From the NCBI GenBank assembly GCA_001701065.1, contig DAAL01000157.1, positions 1-19,877 on the forward strand: a stretch of 19,877 nt of DNA. Reading direction: 5' to 3'. The notes beneath the pieces are model-generated. The model was not told where the DNA came from. It was given only the letters and a program-made list of their open reading frames with translations, and did no database searches. This DNA is from Bacteroidales bacterium GP4. Lineage in GTDB: Bacteria; Bacteroidota; Bacteroidia; Bacteroidales; Muribaculaceae. The position numbers and the translations under genes were made by a program. Positions 15,214 through 19,877 of this stretch are shown here, in pieces (the stretch's first letter is position 1; each line of letters starts with the position of its first letter).

Positions 15214-15251
15214 CAAAATCACATAAATAGAATAAATTAATGATATTAAAA

Positions 15252-15935
15252 ATGAACAAGATTTTAATCCCGGCTCTGTCATTTATAGTCATGATGATAT
15301 CATCGTGCTCTTCGAGAAATGACGAAAAAGATGAGCTTATCCAAGGAATCAGAGAAGACATCGTGTCCAATATCCAGGAAGCGATGAACGAACTCAATGA
15401 CTCTTCCATCCGTGAATTACAGATTCAGCTTAACAACTCTTCGGAGAAAGTGGATGTCACCACCACCCACATGATAGGCGAGGACGGGAAAATCCACGTG
15501 GATGTAAACGTAAACATGGACGACGATTCCGGCACTGACCGTGTAGCCATCATCGCTGTGGTATTAGGAACCGTGGGATTCTTCATGTGCCCTATCCTGA
15601 TGGTGGGAATCATATGCTACTTTATATATAGGAGTAAGCGCGACAAAAACCATGTCATAAACACCGCTCTTACCACGGGACATCCGCTGCCTAAAGAGTT
15701 CTTCTATCAGTCCAGCCCGACCATTAAACTCCAGTCAGGATTTATATACATGGCATGGGCCACGGGATTGTTCCTGTTCTTCTACATGGTAGGGTTTGAA
15801 AGTATCCCTTATCTTGCACTTATACCTTTTATTATAGGAGTAGGAAAAATTGTGGGATGGTTCATATCGCAGAAGAAAGAAAACGACAAAGATAAAGACA
15901 TAATTATAGAGGAATTCCGCGACGATGTTAAGTAA
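15252..15935 (+). CDS. DUF6249-like membrane-anchored lipoprotein, first gene of a sigma-factor operon
   Basis: From the ATG at 15252 (MNKILIP) the product has 227 residues; the ATG at 15240 adds only four. It opens with a lipoprotein-type signal ending MMISSC. Next comes a charged, helical, probably periplasmic segment (DELIQGIREDIVSNIQEAMNE), then an acidic stretch rich in Val and Asp (HVDVNVNMDDDSG). Three hydrophobic segments follow: VAIIAVVLGTVGFF through ICYFIY (long, possibly two passes), FIYMAWATGLFLFFYMVGF, and YLALIPFIIGVGKIVGWF. The tail is charged. The layout matches proteins annotated DUF6249; I place it by architecture, not alignment. Its last 11 bases overlap the start of the ECF sigma gene, so it should be translationally coupled to it. 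It could sense envelope state, but that is inference. Confidence 0.75.
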   Translation: MNKILIPALSFIVMMISSCSSRNDEKDELIQGIREDIVSNIQEAMNELNDSSIRELQIQLNNSSEKVDVTTTHMIGEDGKIHVDVNVNMDDDSGTDRVAIIAVVLGTVGFFMCPILMVGIICYFIYRSKRDKNHVINTALTTGHPLPKEFFYQSSPTIKLQSGFIYMAWATGLFLFFYMVGFESIPYLALIPFIIGVGKIVGWFISQKKENDKDKDIIIEEFRDDVK

Positions 15936-16464
15936 ATGGGAAGAACTTCGGCTGATAGCTCAGTGCGTTGCGACGGACAATCGTCATGCATTTGGGCTGT
16001 TGGTTGAAGAATACAATGACCAATTGCGTCGATTCCTGTTTAATCTTACCCTCGGCAACGCCGCGCTGACTGACGACCTTGCGCAAGAAACATTCCTGAA
16101 AGCTTATCTGTCCATAAGATCTTTCAAGGGACTTTCAAGGTTCAAGACATGGTTGTATCGGATAGCCTATAACGAATACTATAATTATACAAGGAAATAC
16201 TCCGATCTACAACCTACCTATGAACCGCCGCCCGAGTCGAAGTCATCGGATGCGGTCAATGCATCCGATGCGCGCTTAGACGTGGAGGAATGCCTGAAAT
16301 ATCTTAATGATGTGGAACGCATGATAGTTCTTCTTTTCTATCTTGAGGATCAACCCATAAAGAAAATAGTGGAAGTGACGCAACTGCCTGAAGGAACGAT
16401 TAAGTCGCACCTTCACAGGGCAAAAAACAAAATGACTAAAGTTTTCAACAGTTATGAAAGATAA
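15925..16464 (+). CDS. ECF-type RNA polymerase sigma factor (sigma-70 family)
   Basis: This alternative sigma factor directs RNA polymerase to a stress or envelope regulon. Its 179 residues are the ECF norm: region 2 at about 22-92 (LVEEYNDQLRRFLFNLTLG, LTDDLAQETFLKAY, FKTWLYRIAYNEYYNYTR) and region 4 at about 120-175 (LNDVERMIVLLFYLEDQP, EGTIKSHLHRAKNKM). There is no region 3 and no C-terminal extension. Start and stop both overlap their neighbours by 11 bases, so the three genes form one tightly coupled operon. ECF factors are usually held by a co-encoded anti-sigma factor, and the small two-TM protein directly downstream is the natural candidate. It has no SusC/D or FecR partner beside it, so it is not of the nutrient-uptake ECF type common in this phylum. 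Confidence 0.93.
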   Translation: MLSKWEELRLIAQCVATDNRHAFGLLVEEYNDQLRRFLFNLTLGNAALTDDLAQETFLKAYLSIRSFKGLSRFKTWLYRIAYNEYYNYTRKYSDLQPTYEPPPESKSSDAVNASDARLDVEECLKYLNDVERMIVLLFYLEDQPIKKIVEVTQLPEGTIKSHLHRAKNKMTKVFNSYER

Positions 16465-16780
16465 GAATGACATATATTTTAAAGAATTGTTCCGGAAGGA
16501 ACTCCCGCAGGCACCGCGCAATCCGTGGTTTGTGAAGAAGGTCTTGAACCGTCTTCCCGACAAATCACCGAAAGCCTACACATGGGTCGAATACTTGTCC
16601 TATATTCTGTCAGCGGCAGGATTAGTGGCGGCATGGCTGATGCTTCTGCACAAAGTCGACACAAAGGATGTAATCGAGATGTCGGATATCATGGGATTTG
16701 CTGTGATATTGGTCATGGGAATGGTCGTGGCGCTAAGTTTTATAGCTCCATGGGCTAAAAAATGGCTTTTAGAGCCTTGA
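16454..16780 (+). CDS. Small two-TM protein, putative anti-sigma factor or sigma partner
   Basis: The product is 108 residues. Residues 1-45 are soluble, charged and likely cytoplasmic (FKELFRKELPQ, then NPWFVKKVLNRLP). TM helices lie at about 47-66 and 79-100, with a short HKVDTKDVIEMSD loop between them and a basic end (AKKWLLEP). A cytoplasmic N-terminus of this size next to the membrane suits a sigma-binding segment, but there is no zinc-binding HxxxCxxC motif, so it would not be a classical ZAS anti-sigma factor. It overlaps the sigma gene by 11 bases. No clear terminator follows before the EF-G gene 144 bases on. The WF-KKV-NRLP segment recalls small Bacteroidales proteins of unknown function found beside sigma factors. 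The regulatory role is inferred from position. Confidence 0.75.
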   Translation: MKDKNDIYFKELFRKELPQAPRNPWFVKKVLNRLPDKSPKAYTWVEYLSYILSAAGLVAAWLMLLHKVDTKDVIEMSDIMGFAVILVMGMVVALSFIAPWAKKWLLEP

Positions 16781-16924
16781 TTTTTGCCTATAGAACGACA
16801 AAATAGCCACATTTTTTCATTTTGTGTTTTGTAACATATTTTACTTATTAGGTTTTCTCAAAAATAAATCGTAATTTGCGGTCATAAATAAAGTAATTAA
16901 GTTAAACTTTAAATCACTCCGCTC

Positions 16925-19081
16925 ATGAAAGAGTATAAAACTAATGAGATCAAAAACATAGCCTTGCTTGGAAGCAAAGGCTCAGGTAAAACCACACTCG
17001 CTGAAGCTATGCTTTTCGAGTGTGGAGTTATAAAACGTCGCGGTTCGGTTGAATCCAAGAACACCGTGAGTGACTATTTCCCCGTGGAGAAAGAATACGG
17101 CTATTCAGTATTCTCGACCATCTTCTACGCTGAGTTTCTTAACAAAAAGCTGAATGTGATAGACTGCCCGGGAAGCGATGACTTCGTGGGTAACGCCATC
17201 ACTGCATTGAACGTGACCGACACCGGTGTTATACTTGTCGACGCTCAATATGGAGTGGAAGTAGGTACTCAGAACATCTTCCGAACCACAGCACAGATCA
17301 AAAAGCCGGTGATATTCGCCCTTAACCAGCTTGACGGCGAAAAAGCTGACTATGATAATGTGATTGAACAGATGACCGAAATATTCGGCAACAAGGTTGT
17401 GCCCATCCAGTATCCCCTGTCAGTGGGTCCGAGCTTCAACGCCATGATCGACGTTCTTCTTATGAAGAAATATTCATGGGGTCCTGACGGAGGTGTGCCT
17501 ACTATAGAGGACATTCCCGCTGAAGAAATGGAAAAAGCCCAGGAACTTCACCAGAAACTCGTGGAAGCTGCCGCCGAAAACGACGAAACTTTGATGGAGA
17601 AATTCTTTGACCAAGGACATCTCACCGAGGATGAAATGCGTGAAGGTATACGCAAGGGTCTTATTGACCGCTCTATTTATCCGGTGTTCTGCGTAAGCGC
17701 ACTCAAGGACATGGGTGTTCGCCGTATGATGGAATTCCTTGGCAATGTTGTGCCTTTCGTTGAGGACATGCCGGCTCCGGTAGACACCGAAGGCGAAGAA
17801 ATCAAGCCTGACAGCAATGGTCCTCTCTCTCTGTTCATGTTTAAGACTACTGTAGAACCGCACATCGGTGAAGTGAGCTACTTCAAAGTAATGAGCGGAA
17901 CTTTGACACCCGGTGTCGACCTTAACAATATTGACCGCGGCTCAAAAGAACGTATCGCACAGATATTCTGCGTGTGCGGTCAGATTAAGACTCCGGTCGA
18001 CAAGCTTTATGCCGGTGATATAGGTGCGACAGTAAAACTTAAAGACTCTCGTACAGGCAACACTCTGGACGAAAAGGGATGTGAATACAAGTTCGATTTC
18101 GTTAAATACCCTGCGCCCAAATATCAGCGCGCGATCCGTCCCGTCACAGAAAGCGATGCCGAGAAATTAAGCGAAATCCTCACCCGTATGCACGAAGAGG
18201 ATCCCACTTGGCAAATCGAGCAGTCCAAGGAATTGAAACAGACCATCCTTTCAGGACAAGGCGAATTCCACCTGCGCACACTCAAATGGCGTGTCGAGAA
18301 CAACGACAAACTTCCCATCGTGTTTGAAGAGCCTCGTATCCCCTATCGTGAAACTATAACCAAGGCAGCACGTGCCGACTATCGCCATAAAAAACAATCG
18401 GGCGGCGCAGGTCAGTTCGGTGAAGTTCATTTGATTATCGAGCCTTACAGCGAGGGTATGCCGGCTCCCGACACTTATCGTTTCGGATCTCAGGAATTCA
18501 AGATGAATGTGCGTGACACTCAGGAGATACCTCTCGATTGGGGCGGCAAGCTTGTAGTACACAACTGTATAGTGGGCGGTGCCATCGACGCACGCTTCAT
18601 CCCGGCTATTGTGAAAGGTTTGATGGACCGCATGGAACAAGGTCCGTTGACCGGCTCTTATGCCCGTGACGTGAGAGTTTGCATCTACGATGGTAAGATG
18701 CATCCGGTTGACTCCAATGAAATTTCATTCCGTCTTGCCGGACGTAATGCATTCAGCGAAGCGTTCCGCAATGCCAATCCTAAGATTCTTGAGCCGGTAT
18801 ATGACGTGGAAGTTATGGTTCCGGCTGATGTGATGGGTGATGTGATGAGTGACCTTCAGGGTCGTCGCGCTATCATCATGGGTATGTCAAGCGACAACGG
18901 ATTTGAAAAGATTCAGGCAAAAGTGCCCTTGAAAGAGATGTCGTCTTATTCAACTGCTTTAAGTTCTATCACCGGCGGTCGTTCATCCTTCACTATGAAG
19001 TTCGCTTCTTACGAGCTTGTTCCCTCCGATGTTCAAGAAAAGCTTCTTAAAGCTTACTCTGAATCACAGACTGAAGAATAA
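16925..19081 (+). CDS. fusA2: Elongation factor G paralogue (EF-G2 type) with a degenerate GTPase centre
   Basis: This is a ribosomal translocase with all five EF-G domains in 718 residues: G domain about 1-285, II about 297-385, III about 395-465, IV about 470-615, V about 620-705. The P-loop GSKGSGKT is intact (Gly16, Gly21, Lys22, Thr23). Other G motifs are not standard. Switch I RGITI is YGYSV (58-62). Switch II DTPGH is DCPGS, so Ser84 replaces the catalytic His. NKxD is NQLD (134-137). The domain IV tip (KMHPVDSNE) and the HKKQSGGAGQFGEV segment stay EF-G-like. This matches the second EF-G of Bacteroides (EF-G2, BT2167), reported to support translation during starvation and gut colonisation without GTPase activity. 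No ribosomal protein genes or canonical fusA adjoin it, which supports a paralogue. The upstream 144 bases show no exact TAnnTTTG box; TAATTTG near 16872-16878 is one base short. Confidence 0.92.
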   Translation: MKEYKTNEIKNIALLGSKGSGKTTLAEAMLFECGVIKRRGSVESKNTVSDYFPVEKEYGYSVFSTIFYAEFLNKKLNVIDCPGSDDFVGNAITALNVTDTGVILVDAQYGVEVGTQNIFRTTAQIKKPVIFALNQLDGEKADYDNVIEQMTEIFGNKVVPIQYPLSVGPSFNAMIDVLLMKKYSWGPDGGVPTIEDIPAEEMEKAQELHQKLVEAAAENDETLMEKFFDQGHLTEDEMREGIRKGLIDRSIYPVFCVSALKDMGVRRMMEFLGNVVPFVEDMPAPVDTEGEEIKPDSNGPLSLFMFKTTVEPHIGEVSYFKVMSGTLTPGVDLNNIDRGSKERIAQIFCVCGQIKTPVDKLYAGDIGATVKLKDSRTGNTLDEKGCEYKFDFVKYPAPKYQRAIRPVTESDAEKLSEILTRMHEEDPTWQIEQSKELKQTILSGQGEFHLRTLKWRVENNDKLPIVFEEPRIPYRETITKAARADYRHKKQSGGAGQFGEVHLIIEPYSEGMPAPDTYRFGSQEFKMNVRDTQEIPLDWGGKLVVHNCIVGGAIDARFIPAIVKGLMDRMEQGPLTGSYARDVRVCIYDGKMHPVDSNEISFRLAGRNAFSEAFRNANPKILEPVYDVEVMVPADVMGDVMSDLQGRRAIIMGMSSDNGFEKIQAKVPLKEMSSYSTALSSITGGRSSFTMKFASYELVPSDVQEKLLKAYSESQTEE

Positions 19082-19099: not shown

Positions 19100-19134
19100 A
19101 AAAAATAGCGTCGAGAATCTCGGCGCTATTTTTT
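19100..19134. terminator. Bidirectional terminator between EF-G2 and GH97 genes
   Basis: AAAAAATAGCG pairs with CGCTATTTTTT, continuing through a T-G wobble and CGAG/CTCG around the loop AAT. T tracts follow on both strands (TTTTTTT on plus; TTTTTTATTAT on minus). It lies 18 bases after the EF-G2 stop and 27 before the GH97 stop, so it serves both converging genes. Confidence 0.85.

Positions 19135-19161: not shown

Positions 19162-19877
<716 letters not shown>

What the first reader, a model, noticed from the sequence alone, without database searches (positions are those of the whole stretch)
16925..19081. EF-G paralogue with rewritten switch I, switch II and NKxD motifs
The P-loop (GSKGSGKT) and translocase domain IV are kept, but Ser84 takes the place of the catalytic His of DTPGH, RGITI is YGYSV, and NKxD is NQLD. 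Loss of the catalytic His should cripple GTP hydrolysis, and the NKxD change could loosen guanine specificity. The pattern fits Bacteroides EF-G2, described as lacking GTPase activity and used in starvation. If this is a non-Bacteroides lineage, it extends that energy-saving translocation strategy.
Basis: partly seen in the sequence, partly recalled or inferred. Interest (0 to 1): 0.72.

Follow-up and report, generated by a model that had tools for sequence, protein, structure and literature searches.

The report
Known Bacteroidales EF-G2 starvation translation factor
This gene encodes the gut-bacterial version of an already described spare translation factor, EF-G2, thought to keep protein synthesis going during starvation without spending GTP, here in a close cousin of Bacteroides.

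Summary
ORF 16925-19081 encodes a 718-aa EF-G paralogue with GSKGSGKT, YGYSV, DCPGSDDF and NQLD. It is ordinary, though: it passes NCBIfam's 'elongation factor G2' model, and it is 75.5% identical to the chain of PDB 8dmf ('ribosome-bound Bacteroides thetaiotaomicron EF-G2'), which has the same YGYSV, DCPGSDDF and NQLD. YGYSV was printed in 2011 as the Bacteroidetes EFG II motif. The window is Muribaculaceae-like; five of five relatives searched also carry a canonical EF-G. A Cur/BT4338-like site and a fixed-spacing -7-like element lie upstream and are conserved in relatives, so carbon-limitation control probably extends beyond Bacteroides.

The argument from the lost His needs correction. None of 131 EFG II rows had His there; Thermus EF-G-2, with Tyr there, is reported to hydrolyse GTP; E. 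coli H91A is only about sevenfold slower. A domain IV insertion marks this clade better: 26 residues here, 17 in other Bacteroidota, 0-1 in insertion-free EFG II sampled. Most likely it works as B. theta EF-G2 does, as a slow GTP-hydrolysis-independent translocase. GTPase activity was not testable here.

The parts
16925..19081 (+). EF-G2 (fusA2-type) coding sequence, 718 aa
16970..16993 (+). P-loop GSKGSGKT (residues 16-23); Asp of canonical AHIDAGKT replaced by Gly
17096..17110 (+). switch I / G2 motif YGYSV in place of RGITI (residues 58-62)
   Evidence: named as the Bacteroidetes EFG II motif in PMC3150367
17174..17176 (+). Ser84, position of the switch II His of canonical EF-G
17324..17335 (+). 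G4 motif NQLD (residues 134-137); Asp kept, Lys replaced by Gln
18455..18535 (+). domain IV insertion (about residues 511-537; 26 residues relative to insertion-free EFG II; includes strands 517-520 and 523-526 in the model)
16823..16838 (+). Cur/BT4338-like palindrome TGTGTTTTGTAACATA, 2 mismatches to TATGTTnTAnAACATA
   Evidence: consensus from PMC6989115
16872..16880 (+). TAATTTGCG, -7-like element at the conserved offset (+49) from the start of the palindrome
19100..19134 (+). intrinsic-terminator-like hairpin with T tail just after the gene (consensus scan only)

Best explanation
The gene is the orthologue, in a Muribaculaceae/Barnesiella-like bacterium, of Bacteroides thetaiotaomicron EF-G2 (fusA2, BT2167), of the EFG II subfamily. 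Inferred mechanism: under carbon limitation a Cur-type activator binds the palindrome at 16823-16838 and drives a stand-alone fusA2 transcript. The protein binds the ribosome in the EF-G site with domain IV toward the decoding centre and promotes tRNA-mRNA translocation slowly, without GTP hydrolysis, so translation continues at lower energy cost while canonical EF-G falls. Shown here: sequence identity, motifs, insertion, tree, conserved promoter architecture, and canonical fusA in five relatives. Inferred from the B. theta work: ribosome binding, lack of GTPase activity, and induction in starvation.
For: NCBIfam NF058620 EFG2_Bacteroid 1357 bits, cut-off 1000. 542 of 718 residues (75.5%) identical without gaps to 7uvp_A, with YGYSV, IDCPGSDDF and NQLD identical and 18 of 26 insertion residues the same (the 18 counted by eye on its printout). 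8dmf, listed with the same sequence as 7uvp, is titled 'ribosome-bound Bacteroides thetaiotaomicron EF-G2'. Tree: the 14 proteins with the 26-residue insertion, window included, form one clade with support 100, away from 6 canonical EF-G. Five of 5 relatives also carry a canonical EF-G with RGITI, His and NKMD; the one inspected sits beside ORFs that I read by eye as ribosomal proteins S12, S7, S10 and L3. The Cur-like site is within 2 mismatches in 66 of 75 upstream regions, window included, against 0.5% of shuffles; in a second count 53 of 62 against 5 of 3667 background tiles and 4 of 485 AT-matched tiles. TAnTTTG stands at +49 in 32 of 54 and elsewhere only twice. B. theta fusA2 is Cur-activated in carbon limitation (PMC6989115 passages) and supports GTP-independent translation (PMC10294740 passage; PMC12775393 passage).
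Against: No activity was measured. The window's own genome is not held, so its canonical fusA and Cur regulator were not seen. No Cur orthologue was sought in the relatives. The window's own palindrome has 2 mismatches, and about one match within 3 mismatches is expected by chance in a window of this size; its weight comes from conservation in relatives. The two fetched loci closest to B. theta EF-G2, L111 and L112, show only 4 and 3 mismatches under the start codons I assumed. Margus et al. state that NKxD is conserved in EFG II; the window clade departs from that with NQLD, as B. theta EF-G2 does.
Confidence: 0.87

Rival explanations
1. It is an EFG II paralogue that still hydrolyses GTP on the ribosome, as T. 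thermophilus EF-G-2 is reported to do; the motif changes tune affinity and rate rather than abolish hydrolysis.
For: His loss is shared with T. thermophilus EF-G-2 (Tyr), reported to bind and hydrolyse GTP and to be active in poly(Phe) synthesis (PMC3150367 passages). E. coli H91A and H91R lose only about sevenfold and H91Q behaves as wild type (PMC4532990). P-loop Lys and Thr, a switch I Ser and the G4 Asp are kept.
Against: The closest assayed relative, B. theta EF-G2 (75.5% identical), is described as working without GTP hydrolysis and shares the 26-residue insertion, which was not seen in the insertion-free EFG II sampled.
Confidence: 0.1
2. It is a ribosome-bound factor of another kind (recycling, hibernation or tetracycline protection) rather than a translocase.
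For: The PDB chain it resembles is labelled 'Tetracycline resistance protein TetQ'; in Borrelia translocation and recycling are split between EF-G paralogues (PMC3150367 passage).
Against: It scores 120 bits against the Tet(Q) model, cut-off 1425; all EF-G domains including IV and V are present; B. theta EF-G2 is cited as catalysing translocation.
Confidence: 0.03

Closest known systems
Bacteroides thetaiotaomicron EF-G2 (fusA2, BT2167; PDB 8dmf/7uvp)
   Same: 718 aa, 75.5% identical without gaps; same YGYSV, DCPGSDDF and NQLD; same-length domain IV insertion with 18 of 26 residues identical; a Cur-like site upstream in both.
   Different: Host is Muribaculaceae/Barnesiella-like; Lys instead of Ser at residue 18 of the P-loop; activity and regulation untested.
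EFG II subfamily (Margus, Remm and Tenson 2011; PMC3150367, authors recalled)
   Same: RGITI lost with Ser in fourth place; YGYSV is the named Bacteroidetes pattern; switch II His absent in all rows counted.
   Different: Margus et al. give NKxD as conserved in EFG II; of rows outside the window clade NK is kept in 18 of 38 with the 17-residue insertion and 5 of 7 without insertion, while the window has NQLD. The 26-residue insertion is confined to the window clade in my samples.
Thermus thermophilus EF-G-2 (PDB 1wdt/2dy1)
   Same: EFG II; no switch II His (DAPGYGDF).
   Different: Reported to hydrolyse GTP (PMC3150367); chain of 665 aa; 30% identical in the structural alignment.
Mycobacterium smegmatis EF-G2
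   Same: EF-G paralogue reported to bind guanine nucleotides and lack ribosome-dependent GTPase activity (PMC3150367 passage).
   Different: Sequence not compared here.
Canonical EF-G (EFG I)
   Same: Five-domain architecture and fold.
   Different: RGITI, His and NKMD in 6 of 6 Bacteroidota copies compared; 33-34% identical; separate in the tree.

Membership tests
EFG II subfamily | RGITI absent, Ser (or Thr) kept at its fourth position | tested here: met
   YGYSV at 58-62; definition from PMC3150367
EFG II subfamily | groups apart from canonical EF-G | tested here: met
   69-protein quick tree, branch to the 59 EFG II rows support 99, canonical EF-G separate
EFG II subfamily | NKxD (G4) conserved, as the paper states | tested here: not met
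   NQLD in the window. Not a defining feature in this branch: NQLD in 83 of 85 clade rows and in B. theta EF-G2, and the paper itself places Bacteroidetes YGYSV proteins in EFG II
EFG II subfamily | accompanied by another EFG in the genome | tested here: inconclusive
   5 of 5 relatives have canonical EF-G; the window's own genome is not held
Bacteroides-type EF-G2 (NF058620) | profile score over the curated cut-off | tested here: met
   1357.2 bits against 1000
Bacteroides-type EF-G2 (NF058620) | domain IV insertion of about 26 residues | tested here: met
   26 residues in the window, 85 of 85 clade rows and 120 of 120 listed homologues; that the published '26-residue region' is this one is recalled, the paper is not held
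Bacteroides-type EF-G2 (NF058620) | translocation without GTP hydrolysis | not testable with these tools
   needs a biochemical assay
Bacteroides-type EF-G2 (NF058620) | Cur/BT4338-dependent induction on carbon limitation | tested here: inconclusive
   site and -7-like spacing conserved; no expression data
Canonical EF-G (EFG I) | RGITI, DTPGH and NKxD motifs | tested here: not met
   YGYSV, DCPGS, NQLD
Tet(Q)-type ribosomal protection protein | NCBIfam tet_protect_Q cut-off | tested here: not met
   120 bits against 1425

The most novel reading that the evidence does not exclude
GTP-hydrolysis-independent translocation arose stepwise and is wider than Bacteroides. EFG II first lost the switch II His and, in most members, the P-loop Asp. 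A 17-residue domain IV insertion then arose in a Bacteroidota lineage, and a 9-residue extension in Bacteroidales completed it and came with Cur control. If so, the 17-residue class of other Bacteroidota may also be slow, hydrolysis-free translocases under other regulators.
Probability: 0.25. Interest if true: 0.5.

Novelty: new member of a known kind. Interest (0 to 1): 0.2.

Why it matters
The gene itself adds a well-conserved member to a known family and shows that its promoter layout (Cur-like palindrome plus a -7-like element at fixed spacing) holds in Muribaculaceae and Barnesiella, gut relatives of Bacteroides. It also corrects a tempting inference: the missing switch II His is shared by the EFG II proteins examined and cannot by itself be read as loss of GTPase activity. 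The insertion series of 0-1, 17 and 26 residues gives a ready set of natural proteins for testing which element abolishes hydrolysis.

Tried and rejected
Rejected: Tet(Q)-type protection protein, despite the PDB label. Rejected: co-regulation with the upstream ECF sigma factor and 108-aa ORF; of 46 relative loci at least 14 kb long they lie upstream of EF-G2 in 2 (about 0.5-1 kb away in L005, 3-4 kb in L001), and none of the other five window neighbours tested except DUF6249 (same 2 loci) was found. Rejected: Ser84 as a selected residue, since it is mostly Ala in the clade. The first structure model was poor (mean pLDDT 35.7), made from 14 near-identical sequences; a second with 69 diverse sequences was good (87.6). 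A plain TAnnTTTG scan found the element downstream of the palindrome in only 2 of 54; the conserved word is TAnTTTG, one base shorter. The Cur-like site is absent at 2 mismatches or fewer in 27 of 27 upstream regions of 17-residue-class loci, so the regulatory claim is limited to the 26-residue clade.

Rows dropped: 74 of 80 loci were used (6 had under 200 bp upstream) plus the window. In one search my start pattern found 66 of 80 starts and 62 had 200 bp upstream. In one search, 85 of 88 clade loci and 38 of 39 17-residue-class loci were parsed; 6 of the 85 rows are the same gene fetched twice. The shuffles keep single-base composition only. The 109 of 296 figure for near-full-length EF-G2 in Bacteroidota is a hand count of the listing (15 over the cut-off, 94 more at 727 bits or above); I fetched 42 of those 109 and parsed 41. 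Only 7 insertion-free EFG II loci were fetched. Each homologue search scored about 8000 candidates and listed the best 120; only those listed were counted. The Cur regulator itself was not searched for.

Full report
The open reading frame at 16925-19081 (+) is real: ATG start, 718 residues, single stop, with EF-G domains I to V recognised by Pfam. The motifs are as reported: GSKGSGKT, YGYSV, DCPGSDDF with Ser84 where canonical EF-G has His, and NQLD. A terminator-like hairpin with a T tail follows the gene (a consensus scan, 5 sites found in the stretch against 2.4 in shuffles).

What it is. It passes NCBIfam NF058620 'elongation factor G2' at 1357 bits against a cut-off of 1000, and falls short of the cut-offs for canonical EF-G (TIGR00484, 517 against 659) and for Tet(Q) (120 against 1425). 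The closest solved chain is 7uvp/8dmf. Its sequence is 75.5% identical over 718 of 718 residues, with identical YGYSV, IDCPGSDDF and NQLD. The entry 8dmf is titled 'Cryo-EM structure of the ribosome-bound Bacteroides thetaiotaomicron EF-G2', although the molecule is labelled TetQ. The window's 80 best loci in genome contigs are 83-94% identical and mostly titled Muribaculaceae, Barnesiella, Porphyromonadaceae or Bacteroidales; a few carry other names.

Canonical EF-G. The window's own genome is not held. In five related genomes the protein has one EF-G2 match and one canonical EF-G match of 32-35% identity, besides more distant translational GTPases. The canonical copies carry AHIDAGKT, RGITI, His and NKMD in 6 of 6, these five plus one more. 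In the one inspected, the flanking ORFs read by eye as ribosomal proteins S12 and S7 on one side and S10 and L3 on the other.

Family and tree. In a 69-protein tree the 14 proteins with the 26-residue insertion, the window included, form one clade (support 100). It nests in a wider Bacteroidota class with 17 residues there, and that among EFG II without the insertion, apart from canonical EF-G. This was a quick tree with long branches, so the deep order is provisional. The His position is never His in the EFG II rows counted: window plus 85 rows with 26 residues (Ala 67, Ser 14, Gly 3, Met 1 among the 85), 38 with 17 residues (Tyr 22, Phe 6, Leu 5, Thr 2, Ala, Ser, Pro one each) and 7 without (Tyr 5, Leu 2). 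It is also never His in the 360 homologues listed by three searches: 120 near the window (Ala 104, Ser 12, Gly 4), 120 of a type whose named rows are Ignavibacteria or Bacteroidota (Tyr 120), 120 of a type whose named rows are Chitinophagaceae-like (Tyr 119, Phe 1). In a sample of 296 Bacteroidota genomes, 15 hold a match over the EF-G2 cut-off. By my hand count 109 hold a near-full-length match of 727 bits or more.

What the motif changes mean. Margus et al. 2011 (PMC3150367, passages) already list YGYSV as the Bacteroidetes EFG II switch I pattern. They cite T. thermophilus EF-G-2 as hydrolysing GTP and M. smegmatis EF-G2 as lacking ribosome-dependent GTPase activity, and they give NKxD as conserved in EFG II, from which NQLD departs. 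T. thermophilus EF-G-2 has Tyr in the His position (DAPGYGDF). In E. coli EF-G, H91A and H91R hydrolyse about sevenfold slower, H91E about a hundredfold slower, and H91Q like wild type (PMC4532990, abstract, introduction and one results section; that introduction also notes earlier reports of H91A as completely or significantly impaired). The missing His therefore does not by itself predict loss of GTPase activity. The P-loop Asp of canonical EF-G is Gly in the window and in all 85 clade rows. In the 17-residue class it is Gly in 30 of 38, Lys in 4, Ser in 2 and still Asp in 2 (L130, L140), by my reading of the list; it is Gly in 7 of 7 insertion-free loci, and Gly in 357 of the 360 listed homologues with a gap in 3. 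The Asp of NKxD is kept in the window.

The insertion. In the alignment columns of window residues 512-537, the window clade has 26 residues, the wider Bacteroidota class 17 (one row 19), and insertion-free EFG II 0-1. In the good model (mean pLDDT 87.6) this stretch includes strands 517-520 and 523-526. The 9 residues missing from the 17-residue class align with window residues 517-525. I recall that Han et al. 2023 assigned the loss of GTPase activity to a 26-residue region unique to EF-G2. That paper is not held, so the match to this insertion is a recalled lead, not a test. What I read of that work are citing passages: EF-G2 'enables GTP-independent translation' (PMC10294740) and 'catalyzes translocation without GTP hydrolysis' (PMC12775393).

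Regulation. In B. theta, fusA2 is the gene most strongly induced by carbon limitation and is directly activated by BT4338/Cur through a site resembling TATGTTnTAnAACATA (PMC6989115 passages). The window has TGTGTTTTGTAACATA at 16823-16838, the only match within 3 mismatches in 19.9 kb, though about one is expected by chance. In relatives the site is within 2 mismatches in 66 of 75 regions (window included) against 0.5% of shuffles. In a second count it is found in 53 of 62, against 5 of 3667 background tiles and 4 of 485 AT-matched tiles; upstream of six canonical EF-G copies the best match has 4-7 mismatches. These relatives are close kin, so the counts are not independent. A TAnTTTG word lies exactly 49 bases after the start of the palindrome in 32 of 54 cases and elsewhere only twice; in the window it is TAATTTGCG at 16872-16880. 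The genes around fusA2 are not conserved, which fits a stand-alone unit with its own promoter. The site is not seen within 2 mismatches in the 17-residue class (0 of 27), nor at L111 and L112, the two fetched loci closest to B. theta EF-G2 (4 and 3 mismatches).

Verdict. Of the 12 papers that the search listed with at least two of its terms, none held the word Muribaculaceae. The modest additions are the conserved promoter layout outside Bacteroides, the correction about the His, and the insertion series as a test set.

Noticed in passing
PDB 7uvp and 8dmf: The chain is labelled 'Tetracycline resistance protein TetQ' but is EF-G2 by sequence and by the 8dmf title.
   Followed up: yes
L035, L042, L045, P0062: Records titled Clostridium, Paenibacillus, Alistipes timonensis and Firmicutes carry EF-G2 at 86-90% identity to the window's; probably mislabelled metagenome bins.
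   Followed up: no
window 15240-16780: DUF6249 protein, ECF-type sigma factor and a 108-aa ORF without a Pfam match (perhaps an anti-sigma partner) overlap end to end upstream of fusA2; this trio is upstream of EF-G2 in only 2 of 46 relatives.
   Followed up: partly
window 19162-19875 (-): C-terminal part of a GH97 glycoside hydrolase gene whose start lies beyond the window, convergent with fusA2.
   Followed up: no
window 16872-16880 and relatives: The promoter-like word is TAnTTTGCG, one base shorter than the TAnnTTTG Bacteroides -7 consensus that I recall, at fixed spacing from the palindrome.
   Followed up: partly
L130 and L140: Two 17-residue-class EF-G2 proteins keep Asp at the P-loop position where most EFG II have Gly.
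   Followed up: no
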